Shown here: positions 3,618 through 62,870 of the stretch, in pieces
Layout of the letters: each line of letters starts with the position of its first letter
Position numbering within the stretch: position 1 is the stretch's first letter
Assembly: GCA_963693315.1 (NCBI GenBank)
Contig: OY856188.1
Span: 221,172,263-221,236,262 of the forward strand
Length of the DNA: 64,000 nucleotides
Reading direction: 5' to 3'
Source: Diogma glabrata
Taxonomy: Eukaryota > Arthropoda > Insecta > Diptera > Cylindrotomidae
Translations under genes and position numbers: made by a program
The notes under the pieces: model-generated
Told to the model about the DNA's origin: nothing
The model's input: the letters and a program-made list of their open reading frames with translations, nothing else
Databases searched by the model: none

Positions 3618-4173
3618 ATAACTTACCGATATGAGAAGTTATTGCTTTTGGGTCGATTTTCGAAATCGAAATTTTTAATATCTTTACGTTTCAAGACCTC
3701 CTGAAGCTGTTGAGGCTATTTTTAGCTGGCAGTATGTATGTTTGTGTAGGTATGTGCGTGTGTATCATCGTAAGTGGATGAAAATTTATCCAACGCTTTT
3801 TCAACAACGGATGATCAGATTTCAACTTCAATGCTCACAATCGATATATCTTGGTAACGTAACTTACAGCACAGTCCCTTTCTAATGAAATCATTTATTT
3901 TTTAATGGTTTTCAAAAAACAGAAAATCATCTCTTGCAAATATTACGAGAATAAATAATGCTATCTAGACCATTTACCTCCCATTTTATTTGTCATCATG
4001 TGAGACATTTACAATGACATTTGTATAAACAATTGCTATCTTACTTTTTAAGTTTTTTAAGAAAATTTGAAAAATAGGTGTTATTTTCATTACGCAAACG
4101 CATGAGAACTTGATAAAACTTTTGAAATAAAATGAGCTACAAACGCATCGGGGTTTATTTGAATATGGAAAAT
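3618..4173 (+). repeat. Dispersed repeat family B, copy 2 (diverged)
   Basis: A diverged second copy begins at AACTTACCGATATGAGAAGTT and runs through the same blocks as copy 1 until repeat A1 begins at 4174. Many substitutions relative to copy 1 suggest greater age. Confidence 0.65.
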
Positions 4174-5602
4174 ATGGAGGGGCTGAAATCTCACAGCTCT
4201 GAGATATCAAGACTTCGGTCTGGGTAAAGGATTTTGATATAGTTTTCGGCAAAAATCTTTTATGAGGACATGGTTTTTAGTTTTGGGCAGCGATGTATAT
4301 CAAACATAACTCTTTGTTAAAGTACAAATATTTTTTATCTCTGTTTAAAAATTTATTACAAAACTAACACGAAACATCAATACGTTGCCGGAAAATTATA
4401 ATCAAAATTCCAAAAATAATGTTAAATTAAATAAAATCAAACTTTTTCAAAATTCCAAAAATTAGAATAAAATCAAATATTTAAATTTTTTCTAAATTCC
4501 AATAATATTTCAAAAATTCTTAAAAATTCAAACTTTTTCCAAAATTCTAAAAATATTGCAAAAATTATTACAAAATCAATAATACAAACTTTTTCAAAAT
4601 TCCAAAAATATTTCAAAAACTATATCAAATTCAAAAATTTCCATGTCCAATTTCATTTTAAATTACATTTACGTCATAAAAACAGCTTCATTTTTTTCCA
4701 AAAATTGGCTAAAAAAATAAATGAAATCATTTTTTGACACACTTGACATTATTTTTTGACAAACTTATAATGCCATAATTCTCAATAATAATAATAAAAT
4801 ATCATGTCATACAATCTATTAATTTTATTTTTTTCTAAAAAAATTGGGTAAAAAATAAATAAAAACCTTTCTTTTGACACACTTGACAACATTTTTTGAC
4901 AAACTTATAATGCCATAATTCTCAATAATAATAATAAAATTTCATTTCAGAGAAACAATTTTATTTTTTTTCCCAAAAAATTGGGTAAAAAACTAAATAA
5001 AAATCTTTTGACACACTTGACAACATTTTTTTGACAAACTTATAATGCCATAATTCTCAATAATAATAATAAAATTTCATTTCAAACAAACAATTAATTT
5101 TATTTTTTTTCCAAAAAATTGGGTAAACAAATAAAAATCTTTCTTTTGACACACTTGACAACATTTTTTTGACAAACTTATATTGCAATAATCTAGTTTT
5201 TGATCTCACATACCAATCCCTACCATCAAGATTTCTCCAAATTTAATGTTCCTACTCGTAATCACTTAAAATGAACATTTTTTAAGCCAAAAATACGAAA
5301 ATTTGCTATTTTTGACACACATAATGATTTTTTGACACACTTCCGGTACAGTTATCGAACACAGCGTCCTTTCGGACCTGTCCCTTGAGTATACCTATTT
5401 TTAGAAAAAAAAATTTTTGAAATCCCTCCAGCGGTTTTCCCTGCAGCGTAGGTAATGACGGACGGACAGCATACAGACATACATTTTTTTTTTGCTTTTT
5501 TAGAATCAGTAGGTCCTAAAACGTCGAGAAATGCCAAAAAAGGGGGGTAAGATTTTCGCTTTGAACTCATGAATGTAATACTTAGGTCTTTCAGACCGAA
5601 GT
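4174..5602 (+). repeat. Repeat family A, copy 1, with internal minisatellites
   Basis: Starts TATGGAGGGGCTGAAATC and ends near TCAGACCGAAGTAA. ACTTCGGTCTG near the left end has its exact complement CAGACCGAAGT at the right end. Inside are an AAATTCCAAAAATATT-type array (about 4395-4625) and four ~137-bp units beginning TTGACACACTTGAC (4734, 4874, 5008, 5146). Copies: 35911-37205 (same orientation) and about 40912-42862 (inverted). A minus-strand frame at 5352-5705 is partly shared with copy 2, but the copies diverge by frame-breaking changes, so I do not call it a gene. The class is unknown. Confidence 0.7.
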
Positions 5603-5709
5603 AAATATGATATTTTGAATGAGCTATTTTCAAAATTTGGCAAAGGAGTCGGGGAGGATGTCTGTGGATCGTTGAGCAACTGTTTTTTTTAGACTTCAAT
5701 AACACTCAG

Positions 5710-22815: not shown

Positions 22816-22982
22816 TTTGCTATGTAGCCCAAGTTGCTACAGCATCTACATGCTAAATTATACAAAAAAGTGTACAACTATCTACTTCTCTATATAGTCC
22901 CAACGTTGGTCTTAGCACCTGTAATTATTTTTAAATGAAATGTTGATTTTTTTTTTTAATTTTTAATCTGAAATGAGACTGA

Positions 22983-23158
22983 GACTGAATCTAACAAAAT
23001 ATGGTGTGCAATTTATGAAAATTTTTTTGCTATCCACAAAATTGTCGATCGATCTAGTTTCGAACCGATAAGAACTTTTTATTACACTTTAAAAAAGTAT
23101 ATCATTCTCATCAGGGCTAGCCGACTAGATACACTACCAAAAAAATTTTTCGCTATAT
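22983..23158 (-). repeat. Direct repeat 1 of a retrozyme-like unit
   Basis: A 176-bp segment is repeated almost exactly at 23437-23612 (offset 454 bp). Each copy carries a hammerhead-ribozyme motif on the minus strand. The 278 bp between the copies is not repeated here except for a piece found inverted at 23725-23778. Long-terminal-repeat-like direct repeats with one ribozyme each are the organisation of retrozymes and of PLE tandem copies; the link to a particular element is inference. Confidence 0.75.
23052..23130 (-). ncRNA. Hammerhead ribozyme, complete core
   Basis: Minus strand, 5' to 3': stem III strand AUCUAGU (23130-23124), cleavage-site C (23123), an 8-nt stem-I hairpin GGCUAGCC (23122-23115), CUGAUGA (23114-23108), a long imperfect stem II opened by G and closed by C (23107-23062), GAAA (23061-23058), stem III strand ACUAGAU sharing its first A. 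All invariant hammerhead core positions are present and stem III has seven Watson-Crick pairs. Stem II pairs GAAU/GGUUC, GAUA/UAUC and ACUUUUU/AAAAAGU. The very short stem I may limit tertiary contacts and activity. Predicted cleavage follows C at 23123. Confidence 0.7.
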
Positions 23159-23436
23159 AAACCTAAAATAGGTCACTACTCTAGCGAAGTATAAGAAACC
23201 AAAAAACTTTCATAAACATATGTTTATTAGATTCAGGTTTAGTCAATTTGTTTCTCTAGTTGATCACTATTGTTGTTATACTCTAACCAAGTTAGAATTG
23301 GATAACAAATTTGTATCGGTAAGAAGAAGATGACCATCTTCACTTGTGTCTATCGACACATTATCTACAATTAATTCAATGAATTATTTGTGATATTACA
23401 TCACTCCGATGGAAATAATCCCATCATGAATAATAA

Positions 23437-23612
23437 GACTGAATCTAACAAAATATAGTGTGCAATTTATGAACATTTTTTTGCTATCCACAAAATTGTC
23501 GATCGATCTAGTTTCGAACCGATAAGAACTTTTTATTACACTTTAAAAAAGTATATCATTCTGATCAGGGCTAGCCGACTAGATACACTACCAAAAAAAT
23601 GTTTCGCTATAT
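23437..23612 (-). repeat. Direct repeat 2 of the retrozyme-like unit, ribozyme core mutated
   Basis: This copy differs from repeat 1 at a few bases. One lies in the ribozyme core: the minus strand reads CUGAUCA instead of CUGAUGA, replacing the invariant G8 that acts in catalysis. It should therefore be inactive. The GAAA box and both stem III strands are intact. Confidence 0.7.
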
Positions 23613-23621
23613 GAGATTATA

Positions 23622-23780
23622 TTTTTGGTAGTGTATCTAGTCGGCTAGCCCTGATGAGAATGATATACTTTTTTAAAGTGTAATAAAAAGTTCTTATCGG
23701 TTCGAATTCGAATAGAATAGAATTCGATTATTTCCATCGGAGTGATGTAATATCACAAATAATTCATTGAATTAATTGAA
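23622..23780 (+). repeat. Inverted third copy, truncated in the ribozyme
   Basis: About 23624-23706 repeats the ribozyme region in opposite orientation, with CTGATGA intact but GAAA replaced by GAAT where the copy breaks. It then jumps to an inverted match (23727-23778) of the internal segment 23370-23421. The missing ~160 bp and the head-to-head arrangement resemble the partial inverted copies common in PLEs. Confidence 0.65.
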
Positions 23781-24257
23781 ATGTAAGCGTTTGGTGAAAA
23801 TGGCCCATAAATTAAATTCAAATATGTATGGCAACTCCAATTTAGTTTATAGGTAATTTATAGGCAATGAGGTCAGAAACGAAAAAATGATGTGTTGCAC
23901 TGGATAATGATGTGGAAAGGGCCTTTCTATTAAGCTCGCTTTGCAATTAGAACTTCCTGTTTCTTTTCTTCATTAACAGTTTGAATAAGCAATGCATTAT
24001 GCTCGATTTATAGTCGGTAAATTTCTCCTTAACATTAACCTAACGTAAAATAGAAATGTATGAAAATACACTAGAACATTTATAGTCGATTCATTATAAG
24101 TTCATTTCGTTTTATCATAAGAATTTATTTGGTTAAGGATTTTTGACGTTTAGTATAAAACCAAATAAAAACTTGAGAAAACTTAAATTTAATTGAAATG
24201 TCCATAAAAATGAAAATTTATTTAATAAGAAATAGACCGGGAGGCAGCGCTGCATTT

Positions 24258-24513
24258 TTAACTTCCCGATATGGGAACTTATTGTTTTTGGGTCGATTTT
24301 CGAAATCGGAATTTTTATGATATCTTTACGTTTCATGATCTCCTGAAGCTGTTTAGACTATTTTTAGCTGGCAGTCTGTATGTGTGTGTGAGTGTGTGTG
24401 TATGTGTGTATACATCGCTGTATGGAGAATTTTTGCCCAACGCTTTCTCAACAACGGATGGGTCGATTTTAACGAAAATGGTCGCAATCGATGTATCTTG
24501 TCATAACTTAGAG
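24258..24513 (+). repeat. Repeat family B, copy 3, left part
   Basis: Starts at AACTTCCCGATATGGGAA and is cut at ACTTAGAG by a hAT insertion; the remainder resumes at 28036. The same left part is duplicated at 26225-26480. Short frames at 24271 and 26238 are repeat read-through. Confidence 0.75.
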
Positions 24514-27500
24514 CAGTGGTTCTCAAAGCGTGTTCCGCGGAACACTGGTGTTCCACGATGCACTTTCCACTGTTCCGCGAAAAAATCAAATGTACAATCA
24601 ATTCAATTAAAAATTGTTTGAAAATAAAAATCAATTCAATGTAAAATTTACACGTACGTAAAATTTACACGTTTCTCGGCTTTGTATGAATAAAAATATC
24701 TTTCGGGTTAAAATTACTTCTTGAAAACATAAAATATTATTGCAGTTATTAAAATTCTCCTTTTACACATAAATAAATAAAAACTGTATGAAGTTTTTGT
24801 TTCACACAATATGAAGAAATGATTGGATAAGAAACCCGTTTACTTCTTCCGAATTTTCTAGTTTTACTTTAAATGAAAAAGAAGAATTGACGTCGCTTTC
24901 TTCAGATCGTGGATTAAAATTACAGTTCCATGAAAACACTCCTGAAAATTTTTCGATCTCTGTTAAAGATGAATACCCGAGTATAAGCAAAAAATTTTTA
25001 CTAATCCCCATCCCGTTTTCAAACTGTAAAGTGTTTTCATGATTGGATTGAAAACGGGTTGAAAACGTTTTTAAAACTGTGTTGAAAAACTGTCAAAAGG
25101 TCAAAAAGCGTTTAATTGTGTTTCATTAATTGTGTTCAATATTTTATTTTTTTATGCTTGATATTGTATTTTTCTTTTAAATAAAGTTAATGAAATAAAC
25201 ATTTTATAAATCAATGTTTTGTAATTAAAAACAAACATAAACATTTTGCTGCGCATGACACGATCCAGTTTTCCGTTTTCATGTATTTTCGAATATTTGG
25301 ATACCGATACGATCCCAAAAAAAATCGAGATCGTATTTTAGAGTGTGTTTTTTTTCTATATCGGAGAAGATCGGAGAGATATTTTAAACGTCAAAAAAAT
25401 TATCTGTGTTTTTTTGCATTCTCGTATATGTCTGATATATTTGTTCCGTGTTTTTTTTCATTCTCGGATATATCTCAGATCATATATTTTCTCTCTGAAA
25501 ACTTTTACAGATATTACAGATATTTTTTTTTTACCGACTGGAAGTCATCGTTTAAAGTATAAATTTAAAAAATTGTAGGTAAAGTTTCGATTAAAAACAA
25601 ATTTAAATAAATTTTTTAATAAAATTTAAATTTATTTAATAAAATTTTTTTATTTTTTTTTTTGCGGAAAAAACTCAGAGAATGTATTTTATATCTGACA
25701 GTTAGTTATCGGAGGAAAAAATTATACGATATATCTGATACAGATTTTATTTTATCGCTCCGATCTCTTCGATATAGAAAAAAAACACACCCTTAAATCA
25801 ACTCCAATTTAGTTTATAGGTAATTTATAGGCAATGAGGTCAGAAACGAAAAAATGATGTGTTGCACTGGATAATGATGTGGAAAGGGCCTTTCTATTAA
25901 GCTCGCTTTGCAATTAGAACTTCCTGTTTCTTTTCTTCATTAACAGTTTGAATAAGCAATGCATTATGCTCGATTTATAGTCGGTAAATTTCTCCTTAAC
26001 ATTAACCTAACGTAAAATAGAAATGTATGAAAATACACTAGAACATTTATAGTCGATTCATTATAAGTTCATTTCGTTTTATCATAAGAATTTATTTGGT
26101 TAAGGATTTTTGACGTTTAGTATAAAACCAAATAAAAACTTGAGAAAACTTAAATTTAATTGAAATGTCCATAAAAATGAAAATTTATTTAATAAGAAAT
26201 AGACCGGGAGGCAGCGCTGCATTTTTAACTTCCCGATATGGGAACTTATTGTTTTTGGGTCGATTTTCGAAATCGGAATTTTTATGATATCTTTACGTTT
26301 CATGATCTCCTGAAGCTGTTTAGACTATTTTTAGCTGGCAGTCTGTATGTGTGTGTGAGTGTGTGTGTATGTGTGTATACATCGCTGTATGGAGAATTTT
26401 TGCCCAACGCTTTCTCAACAACGGATGGGTCGATTTTAACGAAAATGGTCGCAATCGATGTATCTTGTCATAACTTAGAGCAGTGGTTCTCAAAGCGTGT
26501 TCCGCGGAACACTGGTGTTCCGCGATGCACTTTCCACTGTTCCGCGAAAAAATCAAATGTACAATCAATTCAATTAAAAATTGTTTGAAAATAAAAATCA
26601 ATTCAATGTAAAATTTACACGTACGTAAAATTTACACGTTTCTCGGCTTTGTATGAATAAAAATATCTTTCGGGTTAAAATTACTTCTTGAAAACATAAA
26701 ATATTATTGCAGTTATTAAAATTCTCCTTTTACACATAAATAAATAAAAACTGTATGAAGTTTTTGTTTCACACAATATGAAGAAATGATTGGATAAGAA
26801 ACCCGTTTACTTCTTCCGAATTTTCTAGTTTTACTTTAAATGAAAAAGAAGAATTGACGTCGCTTTCTTCAGATCGTGGATTAAAATTACAGTTCCATGA
26901 AAACACTCCTGAAAATTTTTCGATCTCTGTTAAAGATGAATACCCGAGTATAAGCAAAAAATTTTTACTAATCCCCATCCCGTTTTCAAACTGTAAAGTG
27001 TTTTCATGATTGGATTGAAAACGGGTTGAAAACGTTTTTAAAACTGTGTTGAAAAACTGTCAAAAGGTCAAAAAGCGTTTAATTGTGTTTCATTAATTGT
27101 GTTCAATATTTTATTTTTTTATGCTTGATATTGTATTTTTCTTTTAAATAAAGTTAATGAAATAAACATTTTATAAATCAATGTTTTGTAATTAAAAACA
27201 AACATAAACATTTTGCTGCGCATGACACGATCCAGTTTTCCGTTTTCATGTATTTTCGAATATTTGGATACCGATACGATCCCAAAAAAAATCGAGATCG
27301 TATTTTAGAGTGTGTTTTTTTTCTATATCGGAGAAGATCGGAGAGATATTTTAAACGTCAAAAAAATTATCTGTGTTTTTTTGCATTCTCGTATATGTCT
27401 GATATATTTGTTCCGTGTTTTTTTTCATTCTCGGATATATCTCAGATCATATATTTTCTCTCTGAAAACTTTTACAGATATTACAGATATTTTTTTTTTA

Positions 27501-28035
27501 CCGACTGGAAGTCATCGTTTAAAGTATAAATTTAAAAAATTGTAGGTAAAGTTTCGATTAAAAACAAATTTAAATAAATTTTTTAATAAAATTTAAATTT
27601 ATTTAATAAAATTTTTTTATTTTTTTTTTTGCGGAAAAAACTCAGAGAATGTATTTTATATCTGACAGTTAGTTATCGGAGGAAAAAATTATACGATATA
27701 TCTGATACAGATTTTATTTTATCGCTCCGATCTCTTCGATATAGAAAAAAAACACACCCTTAAAATAAATAGTATTCTAAACTGCAATTGTTGATGTTTT
27801 CATGGTGAATTCAATTCGAATTTGGTTTTCAAATCGTTTTGAACTAAGCATGAAAACGTAGTAAATAATGGAGTGTTTTGGCAACCATTATTCTGTTTTT
27901 TATTGCACTTTTGGTTTCAAAAATGTTAGTCACCCTCGCCCCCTGTTGTAAAGTGTATGCTGTATTGTAGATGTTCCGCCTAAAAATGTATCAGAGTTTA
28001 GTGTTCCCCGACTTCAAAAAGTTTGAGAACCAAGG
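24514..28035. mobile_element. Non-autonomous hAT element with 8-bp target duplication, internally duplicated
   Basis: Left end CAGTGGTTCTCAAA follows ACTTAGAG (24506-24513); the right end, read inverted, is CCTTGGTTCTCAAA and is followed by ACTTAGAG (28036-28043). Eight-base target duplications and CAG-like GGTTCTCAAA ends are hAT hallmarks. Because of the tandem duplication a second left end begins at 26481; before it, the element would have been 1,555 bp (26481-28035). No transposase frame remains. Confidence 0.85.
25340..25793. mobile_element. MITE nested in the hAT element (duplicated at 27307-27760)
   Basis: Left end AGAGTGTGTTTTTTTTCTA and right end, read inverted, AGGGTGTGTTTTTTTTCTA, both continuing into ATATCG and a GATCGG-type block, bound an AT-rich 454-bp segment. 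Overlapping plus-strand frames (for example 25281-25562) are unlikely to be genes since they cross the element border. The identical second copy results from the tandem duplication. Confidence 0.7.
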
Positions 28036-29372: not shown

Positions 29373-29583
29373 ATTCTCCAATCGGCAGTATATCGTAGAT
29401 TATCAATTTTATTCATTATATTCTTTAAAATACGCAACATTTGTCAATTTATATTTTCAATAGATTTTACTATCAAAGTTACCTTAGAATTAAAACAATC
29501 GCGTGCGTTTTCAATTTATTTAAATGTCTGTCAAAGCAAACGATACGCGTTGCTAATTTGTAGTACACTTGAATTTAAAAATA

Positions 29584-30713
29584 ATGGACAACGATTCTGA
29601 TAATTCAATCCCAGGTACTCCGCCTGGCATCTTGGAGACGGCAAGATTGACTACAATAAATTTGTTGCCGCAGAAGTCGAGAGAGAAGTACGAAAATGCA
29701 TACAAGCGTTTTATGGATTATCGCAGAAATAACGAGACCAATTCATTTTCCGAAAATGTTTTAATTGCATATTTTGCGGATTTATGTCAAAAGATGAAAC
29801 CGTCAACCTTATGGTCCAGCTATTCGATGCTGAGGTCGACGCTTAGCATTAACAATAATGTTGGTATATCCAAATATCAAAAACTACGCGCATTACTGAA
29901 ACGTCAGTCAGATGGATATAAGCCTAAAAAATCCAAAATATTAACGAAACAACAAATAGAAACATATATGGAACATGCTCCAGATGAGACATATTTAATG
30001 GCAAAAGTATGTTAATATGTACGCGCTCATTATTTATTTACAAAAAATTTGTTTTCTAGGTTGCCTTAATTTTTGGAATTTCTGGCGCATATCGTCAAGA
30101 TGAACTATGCCGAATGAATTTGAATGACATTCAAGAAGTTGGAAATAATATGTTGATTACCATTCCTGTCAGCAAGACAAACAAACCAAGATCATTTATT
30201 GTAAATGCAGTGTATATCGAAATATATCGTAGATACAAAGCATTACGTCCCACTGATTTCGATAACCCTCGATTCTTTTTCAAATTAAAAAACGGTAGAG
30301 GTAACAGACAAGTAGTGGGCATACATCAATTTGGTAAATTGCCCCAAACTGTAGCTACTTATTTGAAGTTGTCAAATGCGAAAGAATACACAGGGCACTG
30401 TTTTCGCAGATCATCTGCTACAATATTGGTAGATACAGGTGCAGATTTAACTTGCCTTAAGAGACATGGTGGTTGGAAATCGTCAACTGTTGCCGAAGGG
30501 TACATTGATGATTCTCTAAATAACAAAATTGAAGTTGCAAACAGAATTTTCAATAGTACCGAACAAAATCCAGGTGTGGACCCTAACATGATCGAAATAA
30601 ACGATAGTAGTGAATCAGTGGCTATAACTAACCTTAATTGTAATCCAAGTGTGCCAATTTTCAACACCTGTACAAATTGTACAATTAATGTAAATATAAC
30701 CAATAATAAATAG
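29584..30713 (+). CDS. Crypton-type tyrosine recombinase, one intron, catalytically complete
   Basis: Two exons, 29584-30006 and 30060-30713, join across a 53-nt intron (GTATGT donor at 30007, TTTTCTAG acceptor ending 30059) to give about 358 residues. Without splicing the frame stops at once after the donor. Catalytic residues of tyrosine recombinases are visible, numbered from the upstream in-frame ATG at 29569 (subtract 5 for 29584): R158 in GAYRQDEL, a lysine near 185-188 (SKTNKPRSF), H259 and R262 in GHCFRRSSAT, H282/W285 in RHGGWKS and Y294 in AEGYIDDS. The N-terminal ~140 residues match the broken copy at 18.4 kb, which supports the start at 29584. Cryptons encode only this enzyme, which cuts and rejoins DNA through a 3'-phosphotyrosine intermediate. 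The resemblance is to Cryptons of insects; a DIRS-type recombinase or a domesticated gene are less likely alternatives since no RT is nearby. Confidence 0.85.
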
Positions 30714-35589: not shown

Positions 35590-38102
35590 ACAAAATCAAG
35601 CCTAAAGCAAATGAATGCAAGAGCACCTGCATTTCAAAATTTACCTAAACTACATAAAGAAAATATTCCTACAAGACCTCTTTTAAATTATATTACGGCA
35701 CCTACATACAAAATTGCTAAATTTATCACTAAAATTATTAGTTCCACTATTATTCTTATAATTATTCAGTCAAAATAATTTAGATTTTATTGAAAAAATC
35801 AACAATATTAAATTATTACCACAACACAAAATGATATCTTTCGATATTTCTAATATGTATTCTAATATGTTTCTGATACCATCAAAATTTTGTAAGATAA
35901 TTTGAAAAAATATGGAGAGGCTGAAATCTCACACCTCTGAGATATCAAGACTTCGGTCTGGATAAAGGATTTTGATATAGTTTTCGGCTTAAAACTTTCA
36001 CGAGGACATGGTTTTTAGTTTTGGGCAGCGATGTATATCAAATATAACTCTTTGTTAAAGTACAAGTATTTTTTATATCTGTTTAAAAATTTATTACAAA
36101 GCTAACTCGAAATATCAATACGTTGCCGGAAAATTATAATCAAAATTCCAAAAATATTGTTAAATTAAATAAAATTAAACTTTTTCAAAATTCCAAAAAT
36201 ATTCCCAAAACTAGATTGAAATCAAATATTTAAACTTTTTCTAAATTCCGATAATATTCCAAAAATTCTTAAAAATTCAAACTTTTCCAAAATTCTAAAA
36301 ATATTGCAAAAATTATTACAAAATCAAAAATTGAAAATTTTTTCAAAATTCCAAAAATTATAATAAAATCAAAAATTTAAAATTTTTCAAAATTCTAAAA
36401 ATATTCCGAAAATTCTTACGAAATCAAAAATTAAAACTTTTTCCGAAATTCTAAAAATATTGCAAAAATTATAACAAAATCAAATATACAAACTTTTTCA
36501 AAATTCCAAAAATATTTCAAAAACTATAACAAATTCAAAAATTTCCATGTTCAATTTCATTTTCAATTACATTTACGTAAAAAATTGGCTAAAAATAAAT
36601 GAAATCATTTTTTGAAACACTTGACAACATTTTTTTGACAAACTTATAATGCCATAATTCTCAATAATAATAATAAAATTTCATTTCAAACAAACAATTT
36701 TATTTTTTCCAAAAAATTGGATAAAAATAAATAAAAATCTCTCTTTTGACACACTTGACAACATTTTTTTGACAAACCTATAATGCAATAATCTAGTTTT
36801 CGATCTCACATACCAATCCTCACCATCAAAATTTCTCCAAATTTAATGTTCCTACTCGTAATCACTTAAAATGAACGTTTTTTAAGCCAAAAATATGAAA
36901 ATTTGCTATTTTTGACACACATAATGATTTTTGACACACTTCCGGTACAGTTATCGAACACAGCGTCCTTTCGGACCTGTCCGTTGAGTATACCTATTTT
37001 TAGAAAAAAAAAATTTTGAAATCCCTCCAGCAGTTTTCCTTGTAGCGTAGGTAATGACGGCCGGCAGACAGACATACATATTTTTTTTTGCTTTTTTAGA
37101 ATCAGGAGGTTCTGAAACGTCGAGAAATGTCAAAAAAAGTGGGGGTAAGAATTTCACTTTGAGCTCATGAATGTAATACTTAGGTCTTTCAGACCGACGT
37201 AAAACAGGACCTTTAAATGATTGTAAAATTCTTGAGCTGATATCATTAATGAAAATTAAATTTAAATCAAAATTATTTTACTTTACAAAATTATTTTACT
37301 TTACAATTTTTTATTCACGAAGAAGGACTTCCGATGGGTTCACCATTAAGTGGATTATTAGCTAATATATACCTTGACTATTTTGAAAATAAATTTATTC
37401 TTTCTAATTCAAATGAATATCAAAATTTGGTTATTTCATATTCAAGATATATTGATGAAATATTTTTATTATTTAATGAAACTTTTCGGCAAATTGAAAT
37501 TTTCAAAAATTATTTGAACAAAATTAACAAAAAGATACAATTTACTCTTGAAATTGAAAAAGACAATTTGTTAAATTTTTTGGATTTAACCATATCAAAG
37601 AATAATAACAATTTTGAGTTTAAAATTTATAGAAGACCTACTACAACTGATATTACAATTAACTCTAGCTCGCACCATCCATATTTTCAAAAAATGTCAG
37701 CTTATAATTCATTTGTAAATAGATTACTTACTATTCCAATTAATCATTTAAATTTTCAGATTTACATGGAGTAATACACTCATTTGGATGCAGCGACGGG
37801 ACGGTCTCTACATTGGCCAAACTGGTCAAAAGCTCGGTTCCCAGTTGAAACAGCACATTAATGATGTAAGATCAAACATAACCAGGACAAATAATACTGC
37901 TGCTTTCGAACATGCTAAAAAAACAGGTCATTCTTTCAATTATCATGATGCAAAAGTTATCGCAAAAGAAGAATCATGGGCCAAAAGACTTACATTGGCA
38001 TCAATTTTCATTTACAATAATAGACGAAAATCAATTAATCTTAGATCAGATATTGATAACTTAAACCCAGCATATACACAAATTCTCAAATTTCAACACT
38101 AA
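35590..38102 (+). pseudogene. Penelope-like element: RT fragments and GIY-YIG endonuclease
   Basis: PLEs retrotranspose using an RT fused to a GIY-YIG nuclease. Here 35590-35780 encodes LPKLHKENIPTRPLLNYI, the PLE RT palm entry; 37205-37774 encodes EGLPMGSPLSGLLA, RYIDEIFLLF and FLDLTI..FKIYRRPTTTD; and 37788-38102 encodes GLYIGQTGQKLGSQLKQH followed by a typical GIY-YIG tail. Breaks: repeat A2 splits the RT, stops flank it, an ~18-bp microduplication lies at 37280-37310, a large linker between RT and endonuclease is missing, and the catalytic YVDD motif reads YIDE. The usual arginine after the GIY-YIG start reads Q (GSQLKQH). It is a dead element. Confidence 0.85.
35911..37205 (+). repeat. 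Repeat family A, copy 2, inserted in the PLE
   Basis: Begins TATGGAGAGGCTGAAATC and ends TCAGACCGACGTAA like copy 1. It separates PLE sequence DTIKIL.DNLKK upstream from NDCKILELISLMK downstream, giving direct evidence that family A moves as a unit. It has only two of the ~137-bp units found four times in copy 1. An A run at both junctions may be a target duplication. Confidence 0.8.
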
Positions 38103-58565: not shown

Positions 58566-59862
58566 AAGGGTGTCTCAATTTGAACTTTTTTTCTCAGTAG
58601 GCCTATTTTCGCCTACGGCGAAAGATATGTCAATTTATTTTTTGACATTCTGTTAGTATATAGTCTGCCATTAACTAAAATGAACGCAATTTCTATTGAA
58701 AATCGTATTAAAATTATTCAAATCCATTACGAAAATGGTCGATCTGTGAAAACCATATTTCGTAAAATTATTGATATTTTTGGTCGTTATAATCGTCCAT
58801 TAAAGCCTGCAATTAAGAATTTGGTGGATAAATTCGAGTCAATTGGTTCAGTAAAAAACGCAAGAATATCAACACATACTCGTAGCGGTCGTTCAACTCA
58901 AAATATTGATGCCGTGAGTGAAAGTGTGGCTGATGAACCAAATTTGTCAATTAGACGACGTTCACAGCAATTAGGCATATCCAGATCCACCACATGGCGA
59001 ATTTTGCATAAAGATTTGGCTCCAAAGGCTTATAAAGTCCAGTTGGTTCAAGAACTAAAACCAAATGACCATTTCAACCGTCGAAACTTTGCTGATTTCA
59101 TCATTGAACATGGTGCCAAATTTGCTGAAAAAATCATCTTTTCAGATGAAGCACATTTTCACTTGAATGGTTATGTTAACAAGCAAAATTGTCGAATATG
59201 GGCTTCAGAAAATCCAAGAGTAATTGTTGAACAAGCATTGTATCCAATTCGTGTTACTGTTTGGTGTGGATTATGGGCTGGAGGTGTCATTGGACCATAT
59301 TTTTTTGAAAATGATGCAGGTGAAGCTGTTACAGTCAATGGAATACGCTACAGAAACATGATAACTGAATTTTTATGGCCTATTATTGATGATATGGATA
59401 CTGAAGACATGTGGTTCCAACAGCATGGTGCAACATGCCATACAGCACGTGAAACATTGGAATTAATCCATGAAAAATTTCCTGATCGATTAATCTCACG
59501 TTTTGGTGATGTCAATTGGCCACCAAGATCGTGTGATTTGACACCGTTGGATTATTTTTTATGGGGCTATGTGAAAGATGAAGTTTATAAGAACAATCCA
59601 ACAACAATTCAAGAACTTAAAACCAACATTGAACAAGAAATTCGTGAGATCCAACCTCAATTATGTAAAAAAGTCATTGAAAATTTTACTCAAAGAATCA
59701 ATGTTTGCAAACGTGCTCGCGGTGGACATTTGGATGATATCATTTTTAAACATTAAATTGTAGACTATCTACAACATATTTCAATAAAAATATTCCAAAC
59801 TTTCATTCAAATTGTATGTTTTATTCAAAAATTAAAAAAAAAGTTCAAATTGAGGCACCCTG
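58566..59862 (+). mobile_element. DD41D-class mariner element, 1,297 bp, TA target
   Basis: Left end AAGGGTGTCTCAATTTGAAC and right end, read inverted, CAGGGTGCCTCAATTTGAAC are matching ~25-bp termini, each bordered by TA (58564-58565, 59863-59864). The element contains one full-length transposase ORF and little else, the compact layout usual for mariners. Confidence 0.9.
58680..59756 (+). CDS. mariner-family transposase (DD41D spacing), second catalytic Asp replaced by His
   Basis: An uninterrupted 358-residue ORF. The N-terminus has a helix-turn-helix region (MNAISIENRIKIIQIHYENG, residues 1-60), a linker with SGR, and a second DNA-binding region (RRRSQQLGISRSTTWRILHK, about 97-116). The DDE/D domain has D156 in FSDEAHFHL, the position of the second aspartate in WFQQ-H249-GATCHTA, and D291 in LTPLDYFLWGY; 41 residues separate the last two. 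In this family the middle motif is QQDGA; here codon 249 is CAT rather than GAT, so a metal-binding aspartate is lost. The protein could bind its ends but is unlikely to cut DNA. This is the length expected for a full mariner transposase. Confidence 0.9.
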   Translation: MNAISIENRIKIIQIHYENGRSVKTIFRKIIDIFGRYNRPLKPAIKNLVDKFESIGSVKNARISTHTRSGRSTQNIDAVSESVADEPNLSIRRRSQQLGISRSTTWRILHKDLAPKAYKVQLVQELKPNDHFNRRNFADFIIEHGAKFAEKIIFSDEAHFHLNGYVNKQNCRIWASENPRVIVEQALYPIRVTVWCGLWAGGVIGPYFFENDAGEAVTVNGIRYRNMITEFLWPIIDDMDTEDMWFQQHGATCHTARETLELIHEKFPDRLISRFGDVNWPPRSCDLTPLDYFLWGYVKDEVYKNNPTTIQELKTNIEQEIREIQPQLCKKVIENFTQRINVCKRARGGHLDDIIFKH

Positions 59863-61789: not shown

Positions 61790-62870
61790 CCTTCTGTTGA
61801 GTTTCGAGCTGAACTGACAGAAAAATTCTAAAAAATACACAGAGACAGAAAGTTTTATAAACTCTGTACTAAAACTATAGGCTAAGTGTCACATTATTAT
61901 ATTTCTGCATTTTGAGGGAGTGAGATTGGGGAAGGGTGACAAAATCTTTTTTACCAAAACGAATGCGGTGTTTAATTTAAAAAACAATGCAATTTTTTTT
62001 TAAATTTTGCAGTGCACAGTTTTGAATTATTGTCAACTTTAAGTTGCCTAAACCCTCACCCTTTCGAGCTTAATTGAGAGAATTTGAAGAAATTCACAAA
62101 GCCAGGAAGGTTCATACACTCTTAACTAAAACTATAGCGAAGTGTCTCATAATTATATATCTTTATTTTGAGGGAGTAATAGTGTAGAAAAATGAATAAA
62201 AGCTTTTATTGATCCAAACGTGCGGATTTCATATAGACTAAGAGCCCGCGACGGCCAGACCTTCATTATTTTATAAAAGCTGAAAGTTTCTCTGCGCATA
62301 CCCCCTACTCAGGTAGGAACGATTAGCGACGTATAAAGTTTGGATCATAGTGGCTTTGGCAGGGAGCAGGTTCCAAAGGGGCCTCCAAAGTTTCGTGAAA
62401 ATATAAAAGCTAATTTTTTTATATATTCTTCGGGATAGTATTAAAAGTCACGTCACCCATTGCCAGACACTTACTATCGAGGAAACCCCCTGCCAGACAC
62501 CCTTAAACTATAAAGTTTAAATGTGTCTGGCAGGGGGTTTCCACAAAGGTAAGTGTCTGGCAATGGGTGACGTGACTTCGAATACTATCCCGAAGAATAT
62601 ATAAAAAAATTAGCTTTTATACTTTCACGAAACTTTGGAGGCCCCTTTGGAACCTGCTCCCTGCCAAAGCCACTATGATCCAAACTTCATATGTCGCTAA
62701 TCGTTCCCACCTGAGTAGGGAGTATGCGCAGAGAAACTTTCAGATTTTATAAAATAACGAAGGTCTGGCCGTCGCGGGCTCTCGGTCAAATATGAAAGAA
62801 CAATTAATTTAAAAACATTGCAATTTCTCTTCGAATTTTAAAGTGCACAGTTTTTGAATTATTGTCAATT
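61790..62870. repeat. ~280-bp direct repeat, second unit split by a foldback
   Basis: Blocks CTAAAACTATAG, ATTTTGAGGGAGT, AACG-GCGG and GTGCACAGTTTTTGAATTATTG occur in order at about 61790-62045 and again at 62070-62230 plus 62790-62870, with the 542-bp foldback between the two parts of the second unit. Confidence 0.65.
62241..62782. mobile_element. 542-bp near-perfect foldback element
   Basis: AGAGCCCGCGACGGCCAGAC at the left pairs with GTCTGGCCGTCGCGGGCTCT at the right and pairing continues with few mismatches to a centre near 62512, giving arms of about 255 bp. The loop is only a few bases. It is GC-richer than its surroundings and carries no ORF. Weaker matching of ATTTCATAT outside both ends may be an older extension of the termini. 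Confidence 0.85.

What the first reader, a model, noticed from the sequence alone, without database searches (positions are those of the whole stretch)
23052..23130. Complete hammerhead ribozyme in retrozyme-like 454-bp-spaced repeats
The minus strand carries every invariant element: CUGAUGA, a G-C closed stem II, GAAA, and a 7-bp stem III ending in the U-H cleavage site (C at 23123). The 176-bp block is repeated 454 bp away, where the core guanine G8 is changed (CUGAUCA), and partly again inverted. Known families: hammerheads occur in PLE terminal repeats and in retrozymes. Inference: this is an insect retrozyme or non-autonomous PLE with a 454-nt circular or linear monomer and an unusually minimal stem I.
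Basis: partly seen in the sequence, partly recalled or inferred. Interest (0 to 1): 0.88.

Follow-up and report, generated by a model that had tools for sequence, protein, structure and literature searches.

The report
Self-cutting mobile RNA repeat family
The motif belongs to a small gene-less mobile element with thousands of copies in this animal genome, which probably spreads as RNA that cuts itself with an unusually built hammerhead ribozyme and is copied back into DNA by enzymes of Penelope-like elements.

Summary
The hammerhead motif is real in sequence and belongs to a 452-454 nt unit with thousands of genomic copies: 6,508 places with intact core and stem I and 4,941 matches to a pattern that leaves the motif free. 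Units lie in tandem, usually in two head-to-head arms. In 21 two-arm loci, 13 have one outer end at unit position 191-201 and the other at 255-269; none uses one site twice. Flanks share at least 9 nt in 13 of 28 loci versus 1.3% of mismatched flanks. These are published Penelope-like element (PLE) signatures; three PLE insertions from this genome look alike by eye.

Best reading: a non-autonomous, PLE-mobilised retrozyme. Its hammerhead has type III topology with an 8-nt palindromic stem I, so it should cut as a dimer joined through stem I; in the papers I read, such dimers join through stem III. The 40 essential positions are identical between two families 77% identical elsewhere.

Against: the hammerhead fold lies about 10 kcal/mol above the best fold; Rfam scores nothing (nor the PLE motifs); covariation is not significant. 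Cleavage, circular RNA and the helper PLE are untested.

The parts
22982..23612 (-). Left arm of the insertion: tandem units read on the minus strand, from unit position 16 (at 23612) round to unit position 191 (at 22982)
   Evidence: Unit mapping; repeats
23052..23130 (-). Hammerhead motif 1, core intact, type III topology; predicted cut between C at 23123 and G at 23122
23115..23122 (-). Palindrome GGCUAGCC standing in for stem I; 8-bp duplex predicted at -14.8 kcal/mol between two copies
23506..23584 (-). Hammerhead motif 2, same but with G8C in the core (CUGAUCA), expected inactive
   Evidence: effect of G8C on a PLE hammerhead from PMC11167929
23619..23778 (+). Right arm of the insertion, opposite orientation, with an internal rearrangement (unit part 23619-23706, 19 nt of other sequence, unit part 23726-23778); ends at unit position 259
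23635..23706 (+). Truncated third hammerhead copy: GUC, palindrome and CUGAUGA present, stem III 3' strand lost
37253..38102 (+). Penelope-like element fragment (reverse transcriptase and GIY-YIG open frames) in the same window; shows that PLEs are present, not part of the unit
   Evidence: GIY-YIG match is just below Pfam's cut-off

Best explanation
The locus is one old insertion of a non-autonomous retrozyme moved by PLE machinery. Proposed cycle: (1) tandem units are transcribed (inferred). (2) Two neighbouring hammerheads pair through the palindromic stem I and cut at GUC|GGC, releasing 452-nt monomers that are closed into circles (inferred). (3) A PLE reverse transcriptase/endonuclease cuts DNA and starts copying inside the RNA at two sites, unit positions about 196 and 258-266, one from each side of the break (fixed, unequal ends and target-site duplications are shown; the enzyme is inferred). 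(4) Copying runs repeatedly round one RNA circle, giving homogeneous tandem units; the two arms are joined head to head at scattered positions (arrangement and homogeneity shown; circular template inferred).
For: Thousands of copies. Head-to-head tandem arms in 17 of the 21 loci and in 21 of 28. Of 42 outer ends in the 21 two-arm loci, 14 lie at 191-201, 20 at 255-269, 8 elsewhere; 13 loci have one of each, none two of the same (windows set after seeing the data). Flanks share at least 9 nt in 13 of 28 loci versus 1.3% of mismatched pairs. Locus-private variants are fixed in all units of both arms in 5 of 17 two-arm loci, 10 states in all, and in all ten listed units of C1:66420271-66424733. 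Same architecture in three PLE pairs of this genome, read by eye, and in published PLEs (PMC3846280; PMC11167929). Motif: 40/40 essential positions identical between families A and B versus 287/373 elsewhere, Fisher p=1.1e-4. Unit RNA folds far better than shuffles, z=-5.65, 0 of 100. The unconstrained dimer fold makes the 8-bp stem I and both stems III between molecules.
Against: The hammerhead fold (-11.2) is about 10 kcal/mol above the minimum (-21.0), which buries CUGAUGA in a 10-bp hairpin; its predicted share is 5e-8, the dimer fold buries it too, and the competing pairing is kept in family B. No Rfam match. Covariation not significant (90 of 500 shuffles). Within family A, 0 of 18 shared states fall in the 79-nt motif (p=0.03) but for the 40 essential positions alone p=0.19; a length change in the stem II T-run is shared, and two loci share G12A at a CpG. 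No sequence similarity of the unit to three PLEs. 8 of 42 ends miss the two sites and 7 of 28 loci have one arm only in the stretch held.
Confidence: 0.65

Rival explanations
1. Same PLE-mobilised element, but the template is a linear multimeric transcript of an existing array rather than a circle; the hammerhead only trims RNA.
For: PLE loci are transcribed as multimers, and ribozyme mutants did not affect insertion in vitro for one PLE (PMC11167929). Eight locus-private states are shared by some but not all units of an array.
Against: Young arrays are nearly uniform (L046, L052) and private variants often occupy every unit of both arms, while old arrays hold many single-unit changes that a linear template should pass on in order.
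Confidence: 0.22
2. PLE-mobilised repeat whose conserved structure is the hairpin CUGAUGAGAA/UUCUYAUYGG (a protein-binding or promoter element); the hammerhead match is coincidental or dead.
For: That hairpin is the minimum-energy fold in both families and is kept by one-sided changes. Chance strict matches occur at 0.005 to 0.017 per 64-kb window. Rfam gives nothing.
Against: The hairpin does not need C17, GAAA, stem III or the palindrome, yet all are conserved between families. The published PLEs carry hammerheads in the same place (PMC11167929, PMC7761336 passages), and a chance strict match inside one given 452-bp unit would be far rarer than per window.
Confidence: 0.12
3. A foldback-type DNA transposon or satellite whose inverted arms are tandem repeats, spread by transposase or unequal crossing-over.
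For: Inverted arms made of tandem subrepeats resemble foldback and Galileo-type elements (recalled; a Galileo paper appears in the listing, not read).
Against: The two ends differ by 62-70 nt of unit sequence in 13 of 13 loci that use both sites, whereas transposase ends should match. Shared flanks vary in length and the centre is scattered.
Confidence: 0.03

Closest known systems
Metazoan non-LTR retrozymes (PMC7229834, passages read)
   Same: Tandem non-coding repeats of a few hundred nt, AT-rich, no LTR seen, target-site duplications longer than 4 bp, hammerhead in each unit, PLEs in the same genome
   Different: Those carry type I hammerheads; here the topology is type III with a palindromic stem I. 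Head-to-head arms are not mentioned there (the word 'inverted' does not occur).
Penelope-like elements (PMC3846280 passages; PMC11167929 text parts 1-2 of 4)
   Same: Head-to-head inverted copies, a tail on one end, duplications of about 9 bp, two internal start sites, hammerhead upstream of them
   Different: The unit has no reverse transcriptase or endonuclease frame; PLE hammerheads are minimal type I with a reduced or palindromic stem III
Plant LTR retrozymes (PMC7761336 and PMC7229834 passages)
   Same: Type III hammerhead topology and a proposed circular RNA intermediate
   Different: Those have LTRs of about 350 bp, primer binding site, 4-bp duplications and normal looped stems I and II
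Double hammerheads of newt satellite, ASBVd and PLEs (PMC6466107, PMC6155905 passages; ASBVd named only)
   Same: Weak single motif expected to become active by pairing two copies through a palindrome
   Different: Those are joined through stem III; here the palindrome is stem I. The cricket satellite pDo500 is drawn with stems I and II shared (PMC2837043).

Membership tests
Hammerhead ribozyme | Conserved core CUGANGA, GAAA and UH cleavage site with adjoining pairs | tested here: met
   6,508 genomic places with core, palindrome and 5 bp of stem III intact
Hammerhead ribozyme | Three stems that can form | tested here: inconclusive
   Stems II and III form; stem I closes only 2-3 bp in one molecule, 8 bp between two; the motif fold is not the energy minimum
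Hammerhead ribozyme | Match to curated covariance models | tested here: not met
   the same library also misses the by-eye PLE motifs of L054 and L056
Hammerhead ribozyme | Self-cleavage | not testable with these tools
   Needs in vitro transcription
Metazoan non-LTR retrozyme | Tandem non-coding repeats of about 150-450 nt | tested here: met
   452-454 nt spacing; no frame of 110 aa or more in the unit's window interval
Metazoan non-LTR retrozyme | Type I hammerhead | tested here: not met
   Order of elements is type III; no type I reading found in the window
Metazoan non-LTR retrozyme | Circular RNA | not testable with these tools
   No RNA data
Penelope-like element | Reverse transcriptase and GIY-YIG frame | tested here: not met
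   None in the unit; PLEs elsewhere in the genome have it
Penelope-like element | Head-to-head copies, tail at one end, target-site duplication | tested here: met
Plant LTR retrozyme | LTRs, primer binding site and 4-bp duplications | tested here: not met
   Inverted arms, shared flanks of at least 9 nt in 13 of 28 loci; no binding site seen by eye
Foldback DNA transposon | Same terminal sequence at both ends | tested here: not met
   13 loci with two different ends, 0 with two equal ends among 21

The most novel reading that the evidence does not exclude
A new class of double hammerhead, joined through a palindromic stem I in type III topology, releases RNA circles that a PLE enzyme copies from both sides of one DNA break at two different start sites; each genomic array is then a frozen record of rolling-circle reverse transcription of a single RNA circle.
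Probability: 0.5. Interest if true: 0.87.

Novelty: new variant of a known kind. Interest (0 to 1): 0.74.

Why it matters
Which machinery moves animal retrozymes is open, with PLEs named only as a strong candidate (PMC7229834). Here a ribozyme-bearing non-coding unit carries PLE insertion marks at many loci, and the arrays may reveal from sequence alone that one RNA molecule templated both arms. The stem I palindrome would be a permutation of the known stem III dimer trick, and gives a direct test of which stem can be shared in a double hammerhead.

Tried and rejected
Rfam at gathering and relaxed E-values: only spurious microRNA, snoRNA and small-RNA matches, the strongest caused by the inverted repeat; little power. 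DNA search of the own genome with the 177-nt block returned nothing because that search skips very common words; pattern searches then found thousands of copies. Exact patterns in viral contigs: 0 in four scans. Phages and plasmids: no match. Genome contigs: three bacterial matches to an 18-mer, taken as chance and not followed.

LTR/TRIM reading: no TG..CA ends or primer binding site seen by eye, and inverted arms do not fit. Foldback transposon: disfavoured by unequal ends. Inner ends at the predicted cut, as expected if linear monomers were the template: 3 of 38 inner ends lie at unit positions 45-57 where about 1 is expected; suggestive at most. Four of the 38 read 1 or 2 and may be artefacts of where the reference unit was cut. 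Stem covariation: one two-sided change, 90 of 500 shuffles as good. Similarity of the unit to three PLEs: nothing convincing, so the helper PLE is not named. A search for other stem I palindromes did not complete.

Rows dropped: the end-pair count uses 21 of the 28 loci; L034, L045, L047, L049, L006, L015 and L028 show one arm only. Listings are capped and cover the first part of the genome. The count of intact 22-mers was made by eye. The L057-L076 loci were chosen for an older flank state.

Full report
1. The observation. The minus strand of 23130-23052 carries stem III, GUC, stem I, CUGAUGA, stem II, GAAA, stem III in that order, i.e. type III topology. Stem III has 7 bp; stem I is the 8-nt palindrome GGCUAGCC. 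The 177-nt block recurs 454 bp away with G8C, and a third, inverted copy lacks the stem III 3' strand. Strict descriptors are met 0.005 times per order-3 Markov window or once in 60 shuffled windows; loose ones hit 28% of order-3 windows. The motif alone proves little. Rfam gives no hammerhead match, nor on the PLE loci L054 and L056.

2. The genome. The window lies in a 1.33 Gb genome. A 22-mer of the stem II loop occurs 2,008 times. Core, palindrome and five stem III pairs with a free loop occur 6,508 times; the control pattern, read backwards, 0 times. A pattern anchored just 5' of the motif and about 175 nt downstream, leaving the motif free, occurs 4,941 times; of the 100 places listed, 78 keep CTAGTCGGCTAGCCCTGATGAG intact, counted by eye. 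Two families are seen: A (the window) and B, with a different distal stem II.

3. Architecture. In 17 of the 21 loci (20 fetched loci and the window) units lie in two arms, head to head in the hammerhead sense; L034, L045, L047 and L049 show one arm. L052 has seven full units in one arm and nine in the other plus partial ones, 99.7-100% identical to the reference for full units. With seven further 3-kb loci, 21 of 28 have two arms. Of their 42 outer ends 14 lie at unit positions 191-201, 20 at 255-269 and 8 elsewhere (106, 102, 155, 171, 173, 173, 215, 247). Thirteen loci have one of each and none two of the same; the longer end is left in 5 and right in 8. The two windows were set after seeing the data. 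Flanks share at least 9 nt in 13 of 28 loci against 1.3% of mismatched pairs; the window's own 7 nt is not significant. Inner ends are scattered. Two B arrays with both ends fetched were read by eye: L078/L079 has one end at each site; L081 has one end at the second site and one shortly before the first.

4. One template per insertion. Private variants occupy every unit of both arms in 5 of 17 two-arm loci: 3 in L036, 2 each in L038, L044 and L048, 1 in L050. Four partly shared states lie in both arms and four in one ('private' means at most 3% among the other 20 loci, so some may be subfamily states). In one search all ten listed units of C1:66420271-66424733, seven on one strand and three on the other, share one stem III change that keeps a G-U pair. 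This fits repeated copying of one RNA circle from each side of a break; a linear multimer is not excluded.

5. Link to PLEs. Published PLEs have pseudo-LTRs, mostly head-to-head inverted copies, an optional 31-bp tail on one of them and short duplications, 9 bp in one case (PMC3846280, passages). A purified PLE protein cuts and extends both strands and starts copying at two adjacent internal sites that match the tail (PMC11167929, text parts 1-2 of 4). The window holds a PLE fragment with a reverse transcriptase match above and a GIY-YIG match just below Pfam's cut-off. The genome search scored 150 of 9,353 PLE candidates, several with open frames of 802-813 aa and several in head-to-head pairs. 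In the three pairs fetched, one end stops at ..TTTAA or ..TTTTAA and the other runs further, by eye. L056 shows CTGATGA..GAAACCGGTC, a minimal type I hammerhead with a stem III palindrome; L054 a variant core with GAAACGCGTC (by eye). The unit has no convincing similarity to these PLEs, so the link is by insertion marks.

6. Selection on the motif. Between A and B the 40 essential positions are 40/40 identical, distal stem II 30/39, the rest 287/373 (Fisher 1.1e-4 against the rest, 1.0e-3 against distal stem II). B was first found with a motif-containing pattern, which biases this; the motif-free pattern then returned the same two forms. Within A, 18 states shared by at least four of 48 loci all lie outside the 79-nt motif (p=0.03), but p=0.19 for the 40 essential positions, and a T-run length change lies in distal stem II. 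Two loci share G12A at a CpG. Covariation is not significant. Of 73 motif copies over the 21 loci, 56 are identical to the reference; the rest include core changes.

7. Folding. The 79-nt motif prefers a fold (-21.0) that buries the core; the hammerhead fold is at -11.2. B has the same competing pairing. The dimer fold makes the 8-bp stem I and both stems III between molecules but still buries CUGAUGA. The whole unit RNA is far more folded than shuffles (z=-5.65).

8. Comparison. Passages read describe animal retrozymes and PLE hammerheads as type I, and double hammerheads as joined through stem III (PMC7229834, PMC7761336, PMC6155905, PMC6466107). Type III variants in animals are mentioned there for HDV-like circular RNAs. 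Searches for such elements listed none by title and abstract, but Lunse 2017 and Cervera 2014 are not held, so absence from print is not established.

9. Verdict. A PLE-mobilised, non-autonomous retrozyme family with a permuted minimal hammerhead: a new variant of a known kind. The mobile-element part is well supported; catalysis, dimer cutting and circularity are inferred.

Noticed in passing
23832-27764: Direct tandem duplication of 1,966 bp at 99.95% identity starting about 50 bp after the element; a very recent duplication or an assembly artefact.
   Followed up: no
29557-30713: Two adjacent open frames with a phage-integrase-type (tyrosine recombinase) match, possibly a Crypton-like or related element (label recalled).
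   Followed up: no
58584-59756: Open frame of 390 aa, DUF4817 and DD41D/Tc3-like transposase relatives, best match 91% identical over 92% of the query.
   Followed up: partly
62227-62797: Large palindrome, arms about 274 nt at 94% complementarity with 4 nt between them.
   Followed up: no
4169-5605 and 35907-37203: Repeats at 84-92% identity, the second lying directly upstream of the PLE fragment; probably PLE-related tandem pieces.
   Followed up: no
L042, L043 unit position 113; one search list: Old copies often change at CG dinucleotides (by eye), suggesting CG decay in this genome.
   Followed up: no
L049: One-armed array with a long shared flank (up to 16 nt), so single-sided insertions also seem to occur.
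   Followed up: no
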